A model generated the notes under the pieces. That model was not told the DNA's origin. It ran no database searches and was given only the letters and a program-made list of their open reading frames with translations. A DNA stretch of 64,000 nucleotides from Amylostereum areolatum (Eukaryota > Basidiomycota > Agaricomycetes > Russulales > Stereaceae), in contig SAXG01000017.1 of NCBI GenBank assembly GCA_012932865.1, forward strand, positions 806,001 to 870,000, read 5' to 3'. Below are positions 38,584 to 53,336 of this stretch, piece by piece (the stretch's first letter is position 1; each line of letters starts with the position of its first letter). The position numbers and the translations under genes are program-made.

Positions 38584-38792
38584 TGTTGAAAACACAGAGG
38601 GACCTTCAGTCATAAAGTGAAACACAAAGTAGACTGGCCGGGGATTGAACCCAGGACCTCCCATATTCTAGAAGGGTGCTCTAACCAACTGAGCTACCTG
38701 TCCGATAGTGGGAACAGGTTGGTAGTTGAGATAGAGGATATCACCGAGCTCTGATTGTGTGCAACAGGCCAGGGCTTAGCCTTATTTCAACA
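38584..38792 (-). mobile_element. tRNA-bearing mini-LTR element, copy 1 (209 bp)
   Basis: Bounded by TTTTC at 38579-38583 and 38793-38797. Removing the element and one TTTTC restores the gypsy codons PDE-NKPFRIE, which fixes the boundaries exactly. In tRNA sense it starts TGTTGAAATAAGG and ends GTTTTCAACA. It contains a tRNA-like gene at 38630-38703. No open frame. Confidence 0.92.
38630..38703 (-). tRNA. tRNA-like gene inside mini-element copy 1
   Basis: 74 nt fold as a class I cloverleaf: 7-bp acceptor with one A-A mismatch and a terminal G-U, D arm AGCTCAGTTGGTTAGAGC, anticodon stem with one U-U, and T arm CTGGG-TTCAATC-CCCGG. Loop position gives anticodon AGA, but there is no long variable arm as expected for serine, so identity is uncertain. 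A box and B box are both good. Confidence 0.7.
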
Positions 38793-42969: not shown

Positions 42970-43417
42970 TGTTGAAGATATTCCTTTATGTCTGATTTCT
43001 ACGCCTTTATTCTGTTCTATCTCCGTTCTATTCGCTTCTATTCCGCTCCATTCACCCTATTATCGCGTCATTCCGCATCTATACCCTCACATGCCCTCTC
43101 CACTTCACCCACTGTTCGCTATTGTACTGTACTTACTGTAGTTCAGCCCGAGCCTTCCCTAGCTTCAGTTTCGAGTTAGTTACCGCTTTAGGTCGATTCT
43201 CGGCTTATTCCGAGTTTCCTCCCACGCTCCATGGCCTCTACCTGCAGCCACACGCGTCTGCTCCTCCTCAGTCGCTCATTCTGTGCTGCAGGTATGCCCT
43301 TTGCTTGTTTCTGTCTTGTTTCTCAGTCGCTCATTCTGTGCTGCAGCAATCCACTGTTTGTGTCAGTTCTGAGCGTCCCTAGCTAGTTGGCTAGCCCCTT
43401 CAACTGCGACTTCAACA
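42970..43417 (+). repeat. Co1 5' LTR (448 bp)
   Basis: TGTTGAAGATATTCC ... GCGACTTCAACA. Close to the 3' LTR, with two substitutions seen near 43013 and 43026. Confidence 0.95.
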
Positions 43418-43431
43418 GGTTATGGGCCCTG
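43418..43431 (+). promoter_or_regulatory. Co1 primer-binding site
   Basis: GGTTATGGGCCC directly follows the LTR. It is the type known from Drosophila copia, complementary to an internal part (anticodon arm) of initiator tRNA-Met, implying a cleaved half-tRNA primer. Confidence 0.7.
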
Positions 43432-44124
43432 CGCTCTAGCCAACACCCATCACTTTTATCTCGCCTCACAGCACCCCCCTCGCCTCGTCCTTCTACACAC
43501 CTCTCCTACCATCCCTAGAGGCCCCAGCCCTCGAGTTTCGAGTCGAACGACCCATCCGTTGCCTCCCAACACCATCCCCATCCTCCAGGGCGCGCATTTC
43601 GCAACATCAAGCGCGCACGCAACGACCCTTCATCCGTTCGCCTCGCCCTTGCATATTCCGCACCTACTACTCCCTATCTAGCTTCGTGCCAAGCCCCAAG
43701 TCCGTCGCTTTCGTTGTTGTGCCTCCACAGCCTGCGACGCTTCCTCCTCCTCCTCCCACCAACATCAAAGGCGTCCTCAGCGCCCCTTCGACCGTTTGCT
43801 CCCTCGCTTCGCGTCAGCCCTCCCTACCACCCTACCTACCCCCTCGCCAAACGCGGTAGCCCTCGCTGAAGCCGTTCGCCCTCAGGAGCTCGTTGTCTGC
43901 AGGAGGCTGTTTCGAGAAATTTTCACCTTGGGATCGGACGAGTGTAGCTCCCCATCGCGTTGTGCTATCGGTACGCGCTCTTCAGGCCTCCATCTAGACC
44001 ATCCACCCTCCCCATCGCCGTCGTAACCGCCCCCATCGCCCTATCCCTTCGCCCTCGGCGCCCCCTCGAACCTCTGCTCGTCCAAATCGTCGCTTTTTGC
44101 GCATATCCTCTCCAATTCCTCATT
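43432..44124 (+). other. Co1 leader
   Basis: C-rich 5' leader of about 690 bp. The gag-pol frame is open back to 43960, but the first ATG with Gag-like sequence is at 44125. No other gene. Confidence 0.6.
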
Positions 44125-47100
44125 ATGTCCGACTCTATCCCCAAAATCGACGCTCTCACCGGCCACAACTACAAGGACTGGTCCAACGAGGTGCTGGCCT
44201 GGCTCCAGACCAAGGGCTGGGACGCTGTAGTGCTGGGGGAGACGTCCAAGCCGGCGGATACTGCTGCTGCCGCCCTCAAGGAGTACACCTCGATCTGCTC
44301 CAAGGCTGGGGGTGCGATTTACCTCCTCATCTCCAAGGACCAGCGAGGTCCTGTGGACGACCTTAGGCGCGACGCCCCTGCTATGTGGACGAAGCTCGAG
44401 GCGTTGCACGTCAAGAAGGCGCCTGGCGCGCGCTTCAACGCGTATGACGACCTCTTCAATGTCCGCAAGAAGGAGGACGAGTCCCTGCTCGCTATGGCGA
44501 CGCGAGTGGACGATGCTATGCGTCGCATTCGCTCGCTTCGCCCTGCGTCTCTCACCCTCGAGGAGCTCGACAAGGAGCTCACCACCATGGCGTACATCCG
44601 CGCCCTGCCCTCGGAGTACTCCTCCTTCGTCTCCTCCCTCCTCCTGCTCGAGAAGCTCGACCCCGACAGCGTCAAGGACGCGTTTGTGCGCGAGGAGACC
44701 AACAGGGAGCGCAACCCCGAGTTCTTCAAGCCGGACGCCTCGTCTGCGCTCAGTGCGTCGTCCTCTGGCGCGTCTGGCAAGGCCAAGGGGCAGTCCTCGC
44801 GTCCACGTCTCACTTGCGTGTTCTGCAAGAAGAGCGGGCACGAGGAGAAGACCTGCTACCAGAAGCAGATCAAGGACCTGCGTTCTCGCCTTGGGGACAA
44901 GGCCAACGCCGCGTCGTCGTCGTCTGACGGCTTCAACCCTGCTGGCGAACACGCTGGCAGCGCTGCATCCGCAAGTGTCGCTCCTTCCGACCCCCTCTCG
45001 CCGCTGCAGCTCGATGCTGACGTCGATTGGAATGCAGACACCGGCGCCACGTCTCATATGACCCCGCATCGCCACTTCTTCGCCTCCTACCGTCCCCTTC
45101 GCACGCCCATTTGCCTCGCAGACGGAAAGACGGTGTACAGTGCAGGAGTCGGCTCAGTGGTGTTCAATCCGGTTGTAGCAGGAAAGGCGCAGGGCGCCGT
45201 CGAGTTTACTAGAGTCCTCCATGTTCCCCATCTTCGCAATAATCTCCTCTCTGTCCTCTACCTTGCGAAGCATAAGGCGTTCGTCGTCACCATCAAGGGG
45301 AGCCGCGTCTCTTTCGCTAAGGACGGCGCAGTGTGGTTCACTGCAACGATCAACGACGCGAACACCGCCTATCTCGATGGTTCCACCTCTACAGCGTCGC
45401 ACTACGCCCTATCCACCGCGCTCGCCGCCTCTACGCCTCTCGACGCGTCCCTATGGCACCGCCGCCTTGCGCACTTCAACCACACCGGTCTCCAGCGCAT
45501 AGTGCGGGAGAACCCCGTCACTGGTCTCGTCTTCAACTCGTTAGAGAAGCCCGACCCTATCTGCGAGCCCTGCCTCGCTGGCAAGATGCATGCCGACCCG
45601 TTCCCCTCCTCTGCCACCGTCTACACAAAGCGCCTCGCCCTCGTCCACTCCGACCTGCATGGCCCGCTTCCAGTCCGCACCGCCTCTGGCTATCGCTACT
45701 GGGTCCTCTACATCGACGCCGCCTCGCGTTTCTACGCCGTCTACCTGCTTCGCAAGAAGTCGGAGCAGTACGAAGCGTTCAAGGACTTCAAAGCGTGGGC
45801 CGAGAAGCAGACAGGCGAGAAGCTGCTCGCGCTGCAGGACGACAAGGGGGGCGAATACATGGGTCGCAACATGGACGAGTTCTGTTCGCTGCACGGGATC
45901 GAGCGCCGTCATACGACGCGCAATTGCCCTCAGCAGAACGGCGTAGCGGAGCGTGCAAATCGCACCATTGAGGAGGGCGTCACCGCGATGCTTGCGGAGT
46001 CCGGCCTGCCTGCGTCTTTCTGGGGAGAAGCGCTCAGTGCCTACATCCACGTCCGCAATCGCCTTCCCACCGCCGCTATCAAGGCGCACACCACGCCCTT
46101 CGAGCTCTGGCACGGGTCCAAGCCGGATGTGAGTCGTCTGCGCGTGTGGGGATGCACCGCGTACGTCCACATCCAGCACGACAAGCGCAAGGGCCTGCAG
46201 CCGCACATGGTGAAGGCCGCCTTCATCGGGTACCCGGAGGGGTACAAAGGCTGGAAGTTCTGGGACCCTATAGCGAAGAAGGTCATCATTTGCGAGCGCG
46301 CCGACTTTGACGAGCGCGATTTCCCTCGCTCCAGGCTCAACAAGCCGCTCCTGCCCTCGCCTTCCGCTCCCCTCTTCCCTCCTCCGCCTCCATCGGAGCC
46401 TGCTCCCTCTCAGCCGGTGCTGGATGCCGGGGGAGACGACAACTCGTCCTCTGCTGAGCAAGACGAGCCTGATCTGCCTCCAGCTCCGCCTGCTGATGAG
46501 CACGAGCATGATGTCGATCAGGATGCGGCCGATCCCGCTCCTGCGCCGCCTGCAGCCGATCCTGCACCTCCCTCTCCACATGCGGGTCCTTCGCGGCCTG
46601 CTCCTCGAGGGAGGAAGCGCGCCGCCTCGCCCACCGGTCCTCTGCACCGTAGCACGCGCGACGCCGTGGTCAAGGCGCGATCGAACAGCTGGCAGCCTCA
46701 GCCAGTGCCCTCCAAGGCGAAGGTGCGCGAGCCGCTTCCTGCAGTCGAATCCGACGAGGAGGACGCTCATAGCGACTCTCCTGAGCCGTGGGCGAATGAC
46801 GACGTCTACTTTGCGCAGGAGACACCTGAGGCCGCCTTTGCCATCCATACCGCCCTCGAGACCGCCCTGCTATCCGCAGACGGCGAGCCGCTCTCCTACA
46901 GGCAGGCTATGCAGCGTCCGGACGCGGAAATGTGGCTTGCAGCGTGCAGAGAGGAGCTCGACGCGCATGCAGCCAATGGCACCTGGGCTATCGCCTCTCT
47001 CCCTCCTGGCGCGCACGCTGTCGCATCGCGCTGGGTATTCAAGGTCAAGCGCAAGGAGGACGGCTCCATCGAGCGCTACAAGGCGCGCGTCGTCGCCAAG

Positions 47101-48444
47101 GGCTTTGCCCAGCGTCCTGGCTTCGACTACTTCGAGACCTTCGCTCCCACTGCCAAGTTCCAGGCCATTCGCACTGTCCTTGCCCTCGCCGCCGTCGAGG
47201 ATCTCCACCTGCGCTCCATCGACATCTCCCATGCCTTCATCAATGGCGACCTCGATGCGGAGGTCTACATGAAGCAGCCTGAGGGCTTCGAGGAGGGTCC
47301 TCCTGGCGCGGTCTGCAAGCTGCAGAAGTCGATCTACGGCCTCAAGCAGGCCGCTCGCCTGTGGAAGATCAAGCTGATGGAGGTCCTGTGCGACAAGATG
47401 GGATTCCGCTGCATCTACAGCGACGCGTCAATCTACGTGCTCCAGCGCGACGCTGTGCGCGTTCTCCTCCCTGTCTTCGTTGACGATGGGACCTTAGCGT
47501 CGAATTCGGAGCCTGTTCTCGACGAGATCATCGCCACTCTTCGCACGCACTTCAAGCTGCGAGATCTCGGCCCCACCTCCTTCCTCCTCGGCATCCACAT
47601 CACTCGAGACCGCTCTCTGCGCACCCTCTTCCTCTCCCAGCGCCAGTACATCGTCGACACGCTTGCACGCTACAACCATGCCGACTGCCACCCTGTCACC
47701 ACGCCCATGCTTCCTGGCTCGCGTCTGACGAAGGCTATGTCGCCCCAGAACGCGTCGGAGCACGCATTCATGCAGAAGGTGCCCTATGGCAGCGCCGTCG
47801 GCTCCCTGCTCTACATCGCGACTGCTACCCGTCCAGACATCGCCTACACCGTCTCCAACCTGTGCCGCTTCATCTCGGACCCAGGTCCTCAGCATTGGCG
47901 CGCCGTCCAGCATCTGTTCAAGTACCTCCAGGGTACGAAGGACTTGAAGCTCGTGTACAGGCCGAGCGACGACTCCGAGCTGTTCACCACCTTCACGGAC
48001 TCGGACCACGGCGGAAACGTCGACAATGGCCGCTCCACAGGCGGGTATCTCGTCCGCATTGGTTCTGGCGCTGTCAGCTGGAGCTCTCGCCTCCAATCGC
48101 TCGTCGCACAGTCGACGACCGAGGCGGAGTACATTGCTGCCGTCGAGGCTGGCAAGGAGATCGTCTGGATGCGCAACCTGCTCTCTGAGTTTGGATACAC
48201 AGTCGAGGGCGCGTCGCTCCTGTACTCGGACAATCAGTCGTCTATCAACGTCTCGAAGAATCCCGAGCATCATGGACGCATGAAGCACCTCGACCTGCGC
48301 TTCTACTGGCTGCGAGACGAAGTGGAAGCCGGCCGGATTGTTCTCAAGTTTGTGGGGACAAACGAGATGCCGGCCGACATCCTGACGAAGGCGCTGCCTC
48401 GGGAGCGCGTTGTGCGCTGCAGGGAGATGATGGGACTCGAGTAG
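44125..48444 (+). CDS. Co1 Gag-Pol polyprotein, 1439 residues, intact
   Basis: The start is the ATG of MSDSIPKIDALTGHNYKDWS, chosen because homologous Gag begins here. Domains: UBN2-type Gag (about 20-190); zinc knuckle CVFCKKSGHEEKTC (about 231); protease DTGATSHM (about 304); GAG-pre-integrase with HRRLAHFNH (about 450) and CEPCLAGK; integrase core with HSDLHG (about 507), DDKGGEY (about 571) and NGVAERANR (about 610); Pro-rich linker; RT with FVDDG (about 1118) in place of the common YVDD; RNase H with TFTDSDHGG (about 1288) and STTEAEYIA. Copia order (integrase before RT) is clear. No stop or frameshift is seen. Confidence 0.96.
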   Translation: MSDSIPKIDALTGHNYKDWSNEVLAWLQTKGWDAVVLGETSKPADTAAAALKEYTSICSKAGGAIYLLISKDQRGPVDDLRRDAPAMWTKLEALHVKKAPGARFNAYDDLFNVRKKEDESLLAMATRVDDAMRRIRSLRPASLTLEELDKELTTMAYIRALPSEYSSFVSSLLLLEKLDPDSVKDAFVREETNRERNPEFFKPDASSALSASSSGASGKAKGQSSRPRLTCVFCKKSGHEEKTCYQKQIKDLRSRLGDKANAASSSSDGFNPAGEHAGSAASASVAPSDPLSPLQLDADVDWNADTGATSHMTPHRHFFASYRPLRTPICLADGKTVYSAGVGSVVFNPVVAGKAQGAVEFTRVLHVPHLRNNLLSVLYLAKHKAFVVTIKGSRVSFAKDGAVWFTATINDANTAYLDGSTSTASHYALSTALAASTPLDASLWHRRLAHFNHTGLQRIVRENPVTGLVFNSLEKPDPICEPCLAGKMHADPFPSSATVYTKRLALVHSDLHGPLPVRTASGYRYWVLYIDAASRFYAVYLLRKKSEQYEAFKDFKAWAEKQTGEKLLALQDDKGGEYMGRNMDEFCSLHGIERRHTTRNCPQQNGVAERANRTIEEGVTAMLAESGLPASFWGEALSAYIHVRNRLPTAAIKAHTTPFELWHGSKPDVSRLRVWGCTAYVHIQHDKRKGLQPHMVKAAFIGYPEGYKGWKFWDPIAKKVIICERADFDERDFPRSRLNKPLLPSPSAPLFPPPPPSEPAPSQPVLDAGGDDNSSSAEQDEPDLPPAPPADEHEHDVDQDAADPAPAPPAADPAPPSPHAGPSRPAPRGRKRAASPTGPLHRSTRDAVVKARSNSWQPQPVPSKAKVREPLPAVESDEEDAHSDSPEPWANDDVYFAQETPEAAFAIHTALETALLSADGEPLSYRQAMQRPDAEMWLAACREELDAHAANGTWAIASLPPGAHAVASRWVFKVKRKEDGSIERYKARVVAKGFAQRPGFDYFETFAPTAKFQAIRTVLALAAVEDLHLRSIDISHAFINGDLDAEVYMKQPEGFEEGPPGAVCKLQKSIYGLKQAARLWKIKLMEVLCDKMGFRCIYSDASIYVLQRDAVRVLLPVFVDDGTLASNSEPVLDEIIATLRTHFKLRDLGPTSFLLGIHITRDRSLRTLFLSQRQYIVDTLARYNHADCHPVTTPMLPGSRLTKAMSPQNASEHAFMQKVPYGSAVGSLLYIATATRPDIAYTVSNLCRFISDPGPQHWRAVQHLFKYLQGTKDLKLVYRPSDDSELFTTFTDSDHGGNVDNGRSTGGYLVRIGSGAVSWSSRLQSLVAQSTTEAEYIAAVEAGKEIVWMRNLLSEFGYTVEGASLLYSDNQSSINVSKNPEHHGRMKHLDLRFYWLRDEVEAGRIVLKFVGTNEMPADILTKALPRERVVRCREMMGLE

Positions 48445-48463
48445 GCGTCTCATCACGGGGGAG

Positions 48464-48911
48464 TGTTGAAGATATTCCTTTATGTCTGATTTCTACGCCT
48501 TTATTCCGTTCTATCTCCATTCTATTCGCTTCTATTCCGCTCCATTCACCCTATTATCGCGTCATTCCGCATCTATACCCTCACATGCCCTCTCCACTTC
48601 ACCCACTGTTCGCTATTGTACTGTACTTACTGTAGTTCAGCCCGAGCCTTCCCTAGCTTCAGTTTCGAGTTAGTTACCGCTTTAGGTCGATTCTCGGCTT
48701 ATTCCGAGTTTCCTCCCACGCTCCATGGCCTCTACCTGCAGCCACACGCGTCTGCTCCTCCTCAGTCGCTCATTCTGTGCTGCAGGTATGCCCTTTGCTT
48801 GTTTCTGTCTTGTTTCTCAGTCGCTCATTCTGTGCTGCAGCAATCCACTGTTTGTGTCAGTTCTGAGCGTCCCTAGCTAGTTGGCTAGCCCCTTCAACTG
48901 CGACTTCAACA
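48464..48911 (+). repeat. Co1 3' LTR (448 bp)
   Basis: Preceded by the purine tract CGGGGGAG. Matches the 5' LTR. Confidence 0.95.
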
Positions 48912-50087: not shown

Positions 50088-50296
50088 TGTTGAAATAAGG
50101 CTAAGCCCTGGCCTGTTGCACACAATCAGAGCTCAGTGATATCCTCTATATCAACTACCAACCTGTTCCCGCTATCGGACAGGTAGCTCAGTTGGTTAGG
50201 GCACCCTTCTAGAATATGGGAGGTCCTAGGGTCAATCCCCAGCCAGTCCACTTTGTGTTTCACTTTATGACTGAAGGTCCCTCTGTGTTTTCAACA
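50088..50296 (+). mobile_element. tRNA-bearing mini-LTR element, copy 2 (209 bp)
   Basis: Target duplication GAGAG at 50083-50087 and 50297-50301. Same ends and length as the copies at 38584 and 53128, in opposite orientation. Confidence 0.92.
50177..50250 (+). tRNA. tRNA-like gene inside mini-element copy 2
   Basis: 74 nt in the same fold as copy 1, but the D arm has GGGC for GAGC and the T arm reads CTAGG-GTCAATC, which weakens the B box. A TTTT run near the element end (50289-50292) could end Pol III transcription. Confidence 0.62.
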
Positions 50297-53127: not shown

Positions 53128-53336
53128 TGTTGAAAACACAGAGGGACCTTCAGTCATAAAGTGAAACACAAAGTGGACTGGCCGGGGATTGAACCCAGGA
53201 CCTCCCATATTCTAGAAGGGTGCTCTAACCAACTGAGCTACCTGTCCGATAGTGGGAACAGGTTGGTAGTTGATATAGAGAATATCACCGAGCTCTGATT
53301 GTGTGCAACAGGCCAGGGCTTAGCCTTATTTCAACA
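53128..53336 (-). mobile_element. tRNA-bearing mini-LTR element, copy 3 (209 bp)
   Basis: Target duplication CAAAA at 53123-53127 and 53337-53341. Nearly identical to copy 1. Confidence 0.92.
53174..53247 (-). tRNA. tRNA-like gene inside mini-element copy 3
   Basis: 74 nt. Acceptor GGACAGG/CCAGTCC with one A-A mismatch, intact D and T arms, intact A and B boxes, anticodon position AGA. The best preserved of the three. Confidence 0.72.

What the first reader, a model, noticed from the sequence alone, without database searches (positions are those of the whole stretch)
50088..50296. A 209-bp LTR-like element family that carries a whole tRNA-like gene
Three copies (38584-38792, 50088-50296, 53128-53336) have the same length, TGTTGAA...TTCAACA ends, and perfect 5-bp target duplications TTTTC, GAGAG and CAAAA. 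Each holds a 74-nt class I tRNA-like gene with A and B boxes. The ends resemble those of the Copia LTR here (TGTTGAAG...CTTCAACA). TG...CA ends with 5-bp duplications are the mark of an LTR integrase, not of a SINE. The nearest known idea is Cassandra, a plant TRIM with 5S RNA in its LTR; here the Pol III gene is a tRNA. They may be solo LTRs of a tiny element, mobilised by Co1-type integrase.
Basis: partly seen in the sequence, partly recalled or inferred. Interest (0 to 1): 0.9.

Follow-up and report, generated by a model that had tools for sequence, protein, structure and literature searches.

The report
tRNA-bearing miniature LTR retrotransposon (Helenus)
The repeated 209-base unit is the end repeat of a tiny, protein-less jumping element that carries a tRNA-like promoter; this kind of element (Helenus) has already been reported from this same fungus, and one fused insertion here points to the Copia family that probably moves it.

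Summary
The three 209-bp copies are solo LTRs with perfect 5-bp duplications. The genome also holds the parent element: 503 bp = LTR 209 + internal 85 + LTR 209. Its PBS pairs 13 nt with the 3' end of the genome's tRNA-iMet, and a G-rich PPT precedes the 3' LTR. An LTR motif has 168 sites, the PBS 13-mer 56. LTR pairs of equal length are identical in 20 of 20 cases. One insertion has an empty-site counterpart; 8 of 40 distinct units interrupt Copia copies.
The kind is known: Helenus (Kojima 2024), reported from Amylostereum areolatum. This assembly is very probably A. areolatum: one contig has exactly the published longest-scaffold length. Whether the published family is this sequence could not be checked.
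Two details may be new. The window's Copia (Co1) shares the TRIM's ends and nearly its PPT, but primes on another part of the same tRNA. One locus holds a TRIM LTR fused end-to-end to a Co1-type LTR inside one duplication, as if both cDNAs had integrated together. The tRNA-like gene is probably a Pol III promoter (untested).

The parts
38584..38792 (-). solo LTR of the TRIM, duplication TTTTC on both sides; 3 differences from the common LTR
38629..38703 (-). tRNA-like gene in that LTR (anticodon AGA, short variable loop)
   Evidence: ARAGORN; Rfam RF00005 53.7 bits
50088..50296 (+). solo LTR of the TRIM, duplication GAGAG on both sides; most diverged of the three, 7 differences from the common LTR
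50177..50251 (+). tRNA-like gene in that LTR, with damaged B box; not over Rfam's cut-off
   Evidence: ARAGORN; absent
53128..53336 (-). solo LTR of the TRIM, duplication CAAAA on both sides; identical to the common LTR of the full-length elements
53173..53247 (-). tRNA-like gene in that LTR
   Evidence: ARAGORN; Rfam RF00005 56.1 bits
42970..48911 (+). Co1 Copia retrotransposon, the type that most likely mobilises the TRIM; LTRs 42970-43417 and 48464-48911, duplication TTAAG
   Evidence: boundaries read; Pfam domains
43418..43434 (+). Co1 PBS: 17 nt complementary to the anticodon arm of this genome's commoner tRNA-iMet type (12 nt for the other type)
48455..48463 (+). Co1 PPT ACGGGGGAG; the TRIM has ACGGGGGTG before its 3' LTR

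Best explanation
The 209-bp units are solo LTRs of a 503-bp non-coding LTR retrotransposon, a TRIM of the Helenus group, in the fungus Amylostereum areolatum. [quoted passage not shown] The RNA reads through the single short T4 at LTR position 201-204 and ends at the same T4 in the 3' LTR, which gives a repeated R region. Initiator tRNA-Met primes at the PBS with its 3' end, the G-rich PPT primes the second strand, and an integrase from a Copia element of the Co1 type inserts the cDNA with a 5-bp duplication. LTR-LTR recombination then leaves solo LTRs. Shown here: LTR pairs, PBS pairing with the genome's own iMet genes, PPT, duplications, an empty site, solo LTRs, identical LTR pairs. Inferred: Pol III transcription, read-through, and the identity of the helper. 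The confidence below is for the element and its class; for the Co1-type helper I would give about 0.65.
For:: 25 paired units among 45 in the window plus 26 fetched regions; spacing 85 bp in 24 of 25 and 86 in one; 21 of 25 with identical 5-bp duplications; 20 of 20 pairs of equal LTR length identical (17 of 17 after dropping 3 duplicated loci). PBS TGGTAGCAGCACC is complementary over 13 nt to the 3' end (CCA added) of tRNA-iMet at 4 of 6 loci and over 12 nt at the other 2; the 13-mer has 56 sites; of 8 sampled for checking, 7 are the TRIM and one (L092) is not; filled site with ATTGG twice (L094) against an empty site with ATTGG once (L095); 8 of 40 distinct units have Co1 sequence on both sides, with a 5-bp overlap in 7 and 4 bp in one; tRNA-like gene, 56.1 bits in copies of the common type. 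TRIM LTR fused to a Co1-type LTR inside one AATTC duplication.
Against: No RNA data. No similarity between TRIM and Co1 beyond the ends: the internal region scores no better than shuffles (53 of 100 reach it) and neither does the LTR (13 of 100). Co1 primes on another part of iMet. No multi-copy autonomous element with the TRIM's PBS next to a CAACA end was seen (66 sites, 14 beyond the 52, against 18 for the reversed control; the 14 were not inspected). The fused junction was seen once. Four of 25 paired units and 10 of 20 single LTRs lack identical duplications. Changes in older copies also fall in the B box, so selection on the boxes is not shown.
Confidence: 0.9

Rival explanations
1. [quoted passage not shown]
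For: The TRIM PBS is the iMet 3' end while Co1's is the iMet anticodon arm. Kojima reports a rust Copia that uses the 3' end of iMet and several fungal Helenus that use a tRNA 3' end.
Against: No abundant element of that form next to a CAACA end was seen in this assembly, though LTR elements with other ends or a weaker PBS were not excluded. Co1 shares the 7-bp ends and 15 of 16 nt across the PPT/LTR junction. Fused TRIM/Co1-type LTR insertion.
Confidence: 0.3
2. It is a SINE (tRNA-headed, moved by a LINE), not an LTR element.
For: tRNA-like Pol III boxes.
Against: Paired LTRs with PBS and PPT, TG...CA ends, 5-bp duplications.
Confidence: 0.01
3. The tRNA-like gene is a working tRNA that expands the host's tRNA set.
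For: Complete cloverleaf call, 56.1 bits, inside the range of the 63 tRNA matches scored in this assembly (34.8-67 bits; that list includes TRIM copies and mitochondrial-type tRNAs).
Against: Anticodon reads Ser(AGA), but the 75-nt form with a short variable loop is unlike the 82-83-nt Ser(AGA) genes found here; apart from TRIM copies the closest of the held tRNAs is Ile(AAT), 54-56 of 73 positions; mismatches in acceptor and anticodon stems. The held tRNA set was incomplete.
Confidence: 0.06
4. The fused TRIM-LTR/Copia-LTR locus is a nested insertion followed by loss of 5 bp, and says nothing about the helper.
For: Nested insertions are common, and a 5-bp tandem repeat could collapse.
Against: It needs insertion exactly at the LTR boundary plus a precise 5-bp loss; the locus shows one AATTC duplication around the pair and none between.
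Confidence: 0.25

Closest known systems
Helenus (TRIM with tRNA-derived sequence in the LTR; Kojima 2024, PMC10886601)
   Same: Size (503 bp; published range 311-1263), tRNA-like sequence with A and B boxes in both LTRs, PBS and PPT, 5-bp duplications in fungi, priming by tRNA-iMet, solo LTRs, and the same host species, A. areolatum.
   Different: The majority of fungal Helenus prime on the tRNA anticodon loop; this one uses the 3' end, as several do. The published sequence for A. areolatum could not be compared (supplement not readable here).
Cassandra (plant TRIM with 5S rRNA in the LTR)
   Same: Same design: a Pol III gene inside the LTR of a non-coding TRIM.
   Different: 5S rRNA there, tRNA here; land plants there (known here only through).
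SMART / ordinary TRIMs
   Same: Very small non-coding LTR elements that depend on a helper.
   Different: Not described as carrying a small-RNA gene in the LTR.

Membership tests
Helenus | TRIM shorter than 1000 bp with two LTRs | tested here: met
   503 bp, LTR 209 + 85 + 209
Helenus | tRNA-derived sequence in the LTRs, A and B boxes kept | tested here: met
   B box damaged in the 50088 copy
Helenus | PBS complementary to a host tRNA just inside the 5' LTR | tested here: met
   13 nt (4 loci) or 12 nt (2 loci) with the tRNA-iMet 3' end
Helenus | PPT just before the 3' LTR | tested here: met
   ...TTACGGGGGTG before TGTTGAAA
Helenus | 5-bp duplications (fungal Helenus) | tested here: met
   21 of 25 paired, 10 of 20 single LTRs; the others partly explained by nesting, recombination or a cut stretch
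Helenus | no mobilisation protein encoded | tested here: met
   only two ORFs of at least 50 aa (72 and 50 aa) touch the 503 bp of L011
Helenus | mobilised by Copia (fungal Helenus) | tested here: inconclusive
   shared ends and near-identical PPT, one fused junction, but different PBS and no other similarity
Helenus | same sequence as the family reported for A. areolatum | not testable with these tools
Helenus | Pol III transcription | not testable with these tools
   no RNA data
Cassandra | 5S rRNA sequence in the LTR | tested here: not met
   in the window, L011 and L023 only tRNA reaches Rfam's cut-off, no 5S
SINE | no LTRs, LINE-type target-primed insertion | tested here: not met
   LTR pairs, PBS, PPT, 5-bp duplications

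The most novel reading that the evidence does not exclude
A Pol III-driven TRIM is carried by a Copia element that shares only its terminal 7 bp and nearly its PPT, while the two prime on different parts of the same packaged tRNA (TRIM on the 3' end of iMet, Copia on its anticodon arm). The fused TRIM-LTR/Copia-LTR insertion would be a trace of both cDNAs in one particle, showing that neither LTR homology nor a shared priming site is needed for trans-mobilisation.
Probability: 0.45. Interest if true: 0.5.

Novelty: already known. Interest (0 to 1): 0.32.

Why it matters
How TRIMs with a Pol III gene are mobilised is open. Kojima infers Copia for fungal Helenus from PBS similarity, duplication length and one case of shared internal sequence, and states that nothing points to a partner for Cassandra. 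Here a young, nearly uniform family sits beside a plausible helper in one small genome, with one physical trace of co-integration, so the question could be tested directly. Practically, these LTRs are called as tRNA genes and probably inflate tRNA counts: 457 were published for this genome, and an LTR motif of this family alone has 168 sites; the overlap of the two sets was not tested.

Tried and rejected
Host by 18S (Rfam RF01960) did not complete, and an ITS-primer pattern gave no site. The host was instead inferred from protein relatives (Amylostereum chailletii, 47 of 48 residues; 95% over 70% of the query) and from an exact scaffold length. The Copia protein search did not name the host; its named relatives were plants (39-41% identity in the top rows) and Agaricomycetes such as Sparassis, Taiwanofungus and Trametes (57-60%). 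The first iMet patterns assumed another D-loop: one search found nothing, one chance site (L043). The pattern was written wrongly (LTR start instead of LTR end); its zero is meaningless, and it was replaced. double-counted loci that had been turned round; its table is used only for LTR identity and T-run positions, not for counts. In one search the Co1 LTR slice is one base off at its end, which does not matter for the scores. The tRNA-like sequence as the TRIM's own primer was rejected: longest complementarity with the PBS is 4 nt. Selection on the A/B boxes among older copies could not be shown. L096 was fetched to look for the end of a full Copia in L023 and was not needed, because only a solo Copia LTR is there. 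A paper search for LTR-LTR junctions listed 10 of 130 papers; none was opened.

Full report
Observation. The three 209-bp copies are present as described, with TGTTGAA...TTCAACA ends and duplications TTTTC, GAGAG and CAAAA. All three carry a tRNA-like gene by ARAGORN, two of three by Rfam's cut-off. The copy at 50088 differs most from the common LTR (7 positions; the others 3 and 0) and has a damaged B box. A motif of the LTR has 168 sites in the assembly at up to 3 mismatches, against 0 for the reversed control (100 of the 168 places were listed). The assembly seems to contain haplotigs, so sites may be counted twice.

Parent element. One search showed LTRs spaced 294 bp start to start. In the window and 26 fetched regions (45 units), 25 are pairs on one strand (gap 85 bp in 24, 86 in one) and 20 are single LTRs; two of these 20, in L015 and L016, are really parts of longer structures because the PPT precedes them. 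Of the 25 pairs, 21 have identical 5-bp duplications. Of the other four, L033:1427 has another TRIM nested in its end, L016 is an inverted double element with its own outer duplication GATGA, and L025:4070 carries the left flank of one other copy (L026) and the right flank of another (L024), as expected from recombination between copies; L030 is unexplained. Twenty of the 25 pairs have LTRs of equal length, and all 20 are identical. Ten of the 20 single LTRs have identical duplications, including the window's three. Five of the 45 units are duplicates of others; without them 18 of 22 pairs have identical duplications. Only two ORFs of at least 50 aa (72 and 50 aa) touch the 503-bp element of L011.

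Priming and termini. The internal region begins TGGTAGCAGCACC. Six loci with iMet genes were found in this genome. The PBS is complementary to the CCA-ended 3' end over 13 nt at four of them and over 12 nt at the other two. The exact 13-mer has 56 sites, 52 of them directly after TCAACA. Of eight sites fetched for checking, seven are the TRIM and one (L092) is not. The 3' LTR is preceded by ACGGGGGTG. The only T4 of the LTR, at 201-204, lies 5 bp before its end, and the internal region has none; a Pol III transcript would therefore have to read through it once (inference).

Insertion as a unit. C158 carries the element between two ATTGG copies (L094). C72 has one ATTGG and no element; the flanks align at 95% and 87%. 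C72 is apparently the other haplotype, since two neighbouring insertions (duplications GTTTG and GGAGC) have the same flanks on both contigs over the 45 bp compared (both flanks for the first, one flank for the second). After removing 5 duplicate loci, 8 of 40 distinct units lie inside Co1-type Copia sequence on both flanks (overlap 5 bp in seven, 4 bp in one), and 5 of 40 on one flank only. The sampled loci are the best matches, not a random sample.

Helper. The window's Co1 Copia (42970-48911, duplication TTAAG; read, domains) has LTR ends TGTTGAAG...CTTCAACA and PPT ACGGGGGAG: 15 of 16 nt agree with the TRIM across the PPT/LTR junction. Its PBS, however, matches 17 nt of the anticodon arm of the commoner iMet type (12 nt of the other), a half-tRNA primer of the kind Kojima describes for most fungal Helenus and several rust Copia. 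There is no further similarity. A search for CAACA + 0-3 nt + TGGTAGC found 66 sites, 14 beyond the 52, against 18 in the reversed control, so no abundant element of that form shows besides the TRIM; the 14 were not inspected. In L023 a TRIM LTR (875-1083) is followed without any spacer by a Co1-type LTR from end to end (1084-1535, 92% identical to the window's), with AATTC before the first and after the second and none between. I read this as end-joined TRIM and Copia cDNAs inserted together and later reduced to solo LTRs; a nested insertion with loss of 5 bp is the alternative. It was the only such junction in the loci held; the whole genome was not searched for it.

tRNA-like gene. It folds as a cloverleaf of 75 nt with a short variable loop, anticodon AGA and mismatches in two stems. 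Ser(AGA) genes of this genome are 82-83 nt. Apart from TRIM copies the closest held tRNA is Ile(AAT), 54-56 of 73 positions, from an incomplete set (63 of 1434 candidates were scored). A promoter role is more likely than a tRNA role; neither was tested.

Literature. Kojima 2024 (PMC10886601; I read parts 1-4 of 6 of the text, the figure and table section and a term search) defines Helenus as TRIMs with tRNA-derived sequence in the LTR and names Amylostereum areolatum in the text, though not in Table 1. Fu et al. 2020 (PMC7227769; passages only) give a longest scaffold of 3,099,494 bp, 457 tRNA genes, 248 scaffolds and 57,567,124 bp in their table (53,481,184 bp in their text). Contig C1 here is 3,099,494 bp; the held assembly has 57,130,172 bp in 182 contigs, so it is not the complete published set, but the exact length and the protein relatives make the species nearly certain. 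So the kind and its presence in this species are published. The supplement with the sequences could not be opened. Searches of open PubMed Central papers for Helenus, for tRNA-like LTR elements in fungi and for the species with 'retrotransposon' listed no other report that I recognised as about this element; from these listings only Kojima and passages of Fu were opened.

Noticed in passing
L023 870-1540 (G000:C56): TRIM LTR fused end-to-end to a Co1-type Copia LTR inside one AATTC duplication; possible co-integration of two cDNAs.
   Followed up: partly
L016 833-1488 (G000:C96): Inverted double TRIM: LTR and internal region on one strand, part of an LTR, then internal region and LTR on the other strand, all inside one GATGA duplication; looks like a self-integration product that was then inserted.
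   Followed up: partly
L017 841-2483 (G000:C96): Two solo LTRs in inverted orientation with swapped duplications (GTTTG/TGACA and the reverse), as expected if the 1.2 kb between them inverted by LTR-LTR recombination.
   Followed up: no
L018 and L019 (G000:C1 about 1.63 and 1.64 Mb): A segment with the same four TRIM units appears twice about 11.3 kb apart; a tandem duplication or an assembly effect.
   Followed up: no
G000:C85, C150, C151, C87, C77: Clusters of tRNA genes that look mitochondrial near the ends of long contigs as well as on small ones; possible misjoined or inserted mitochondrial DNA.
   Followed up: no
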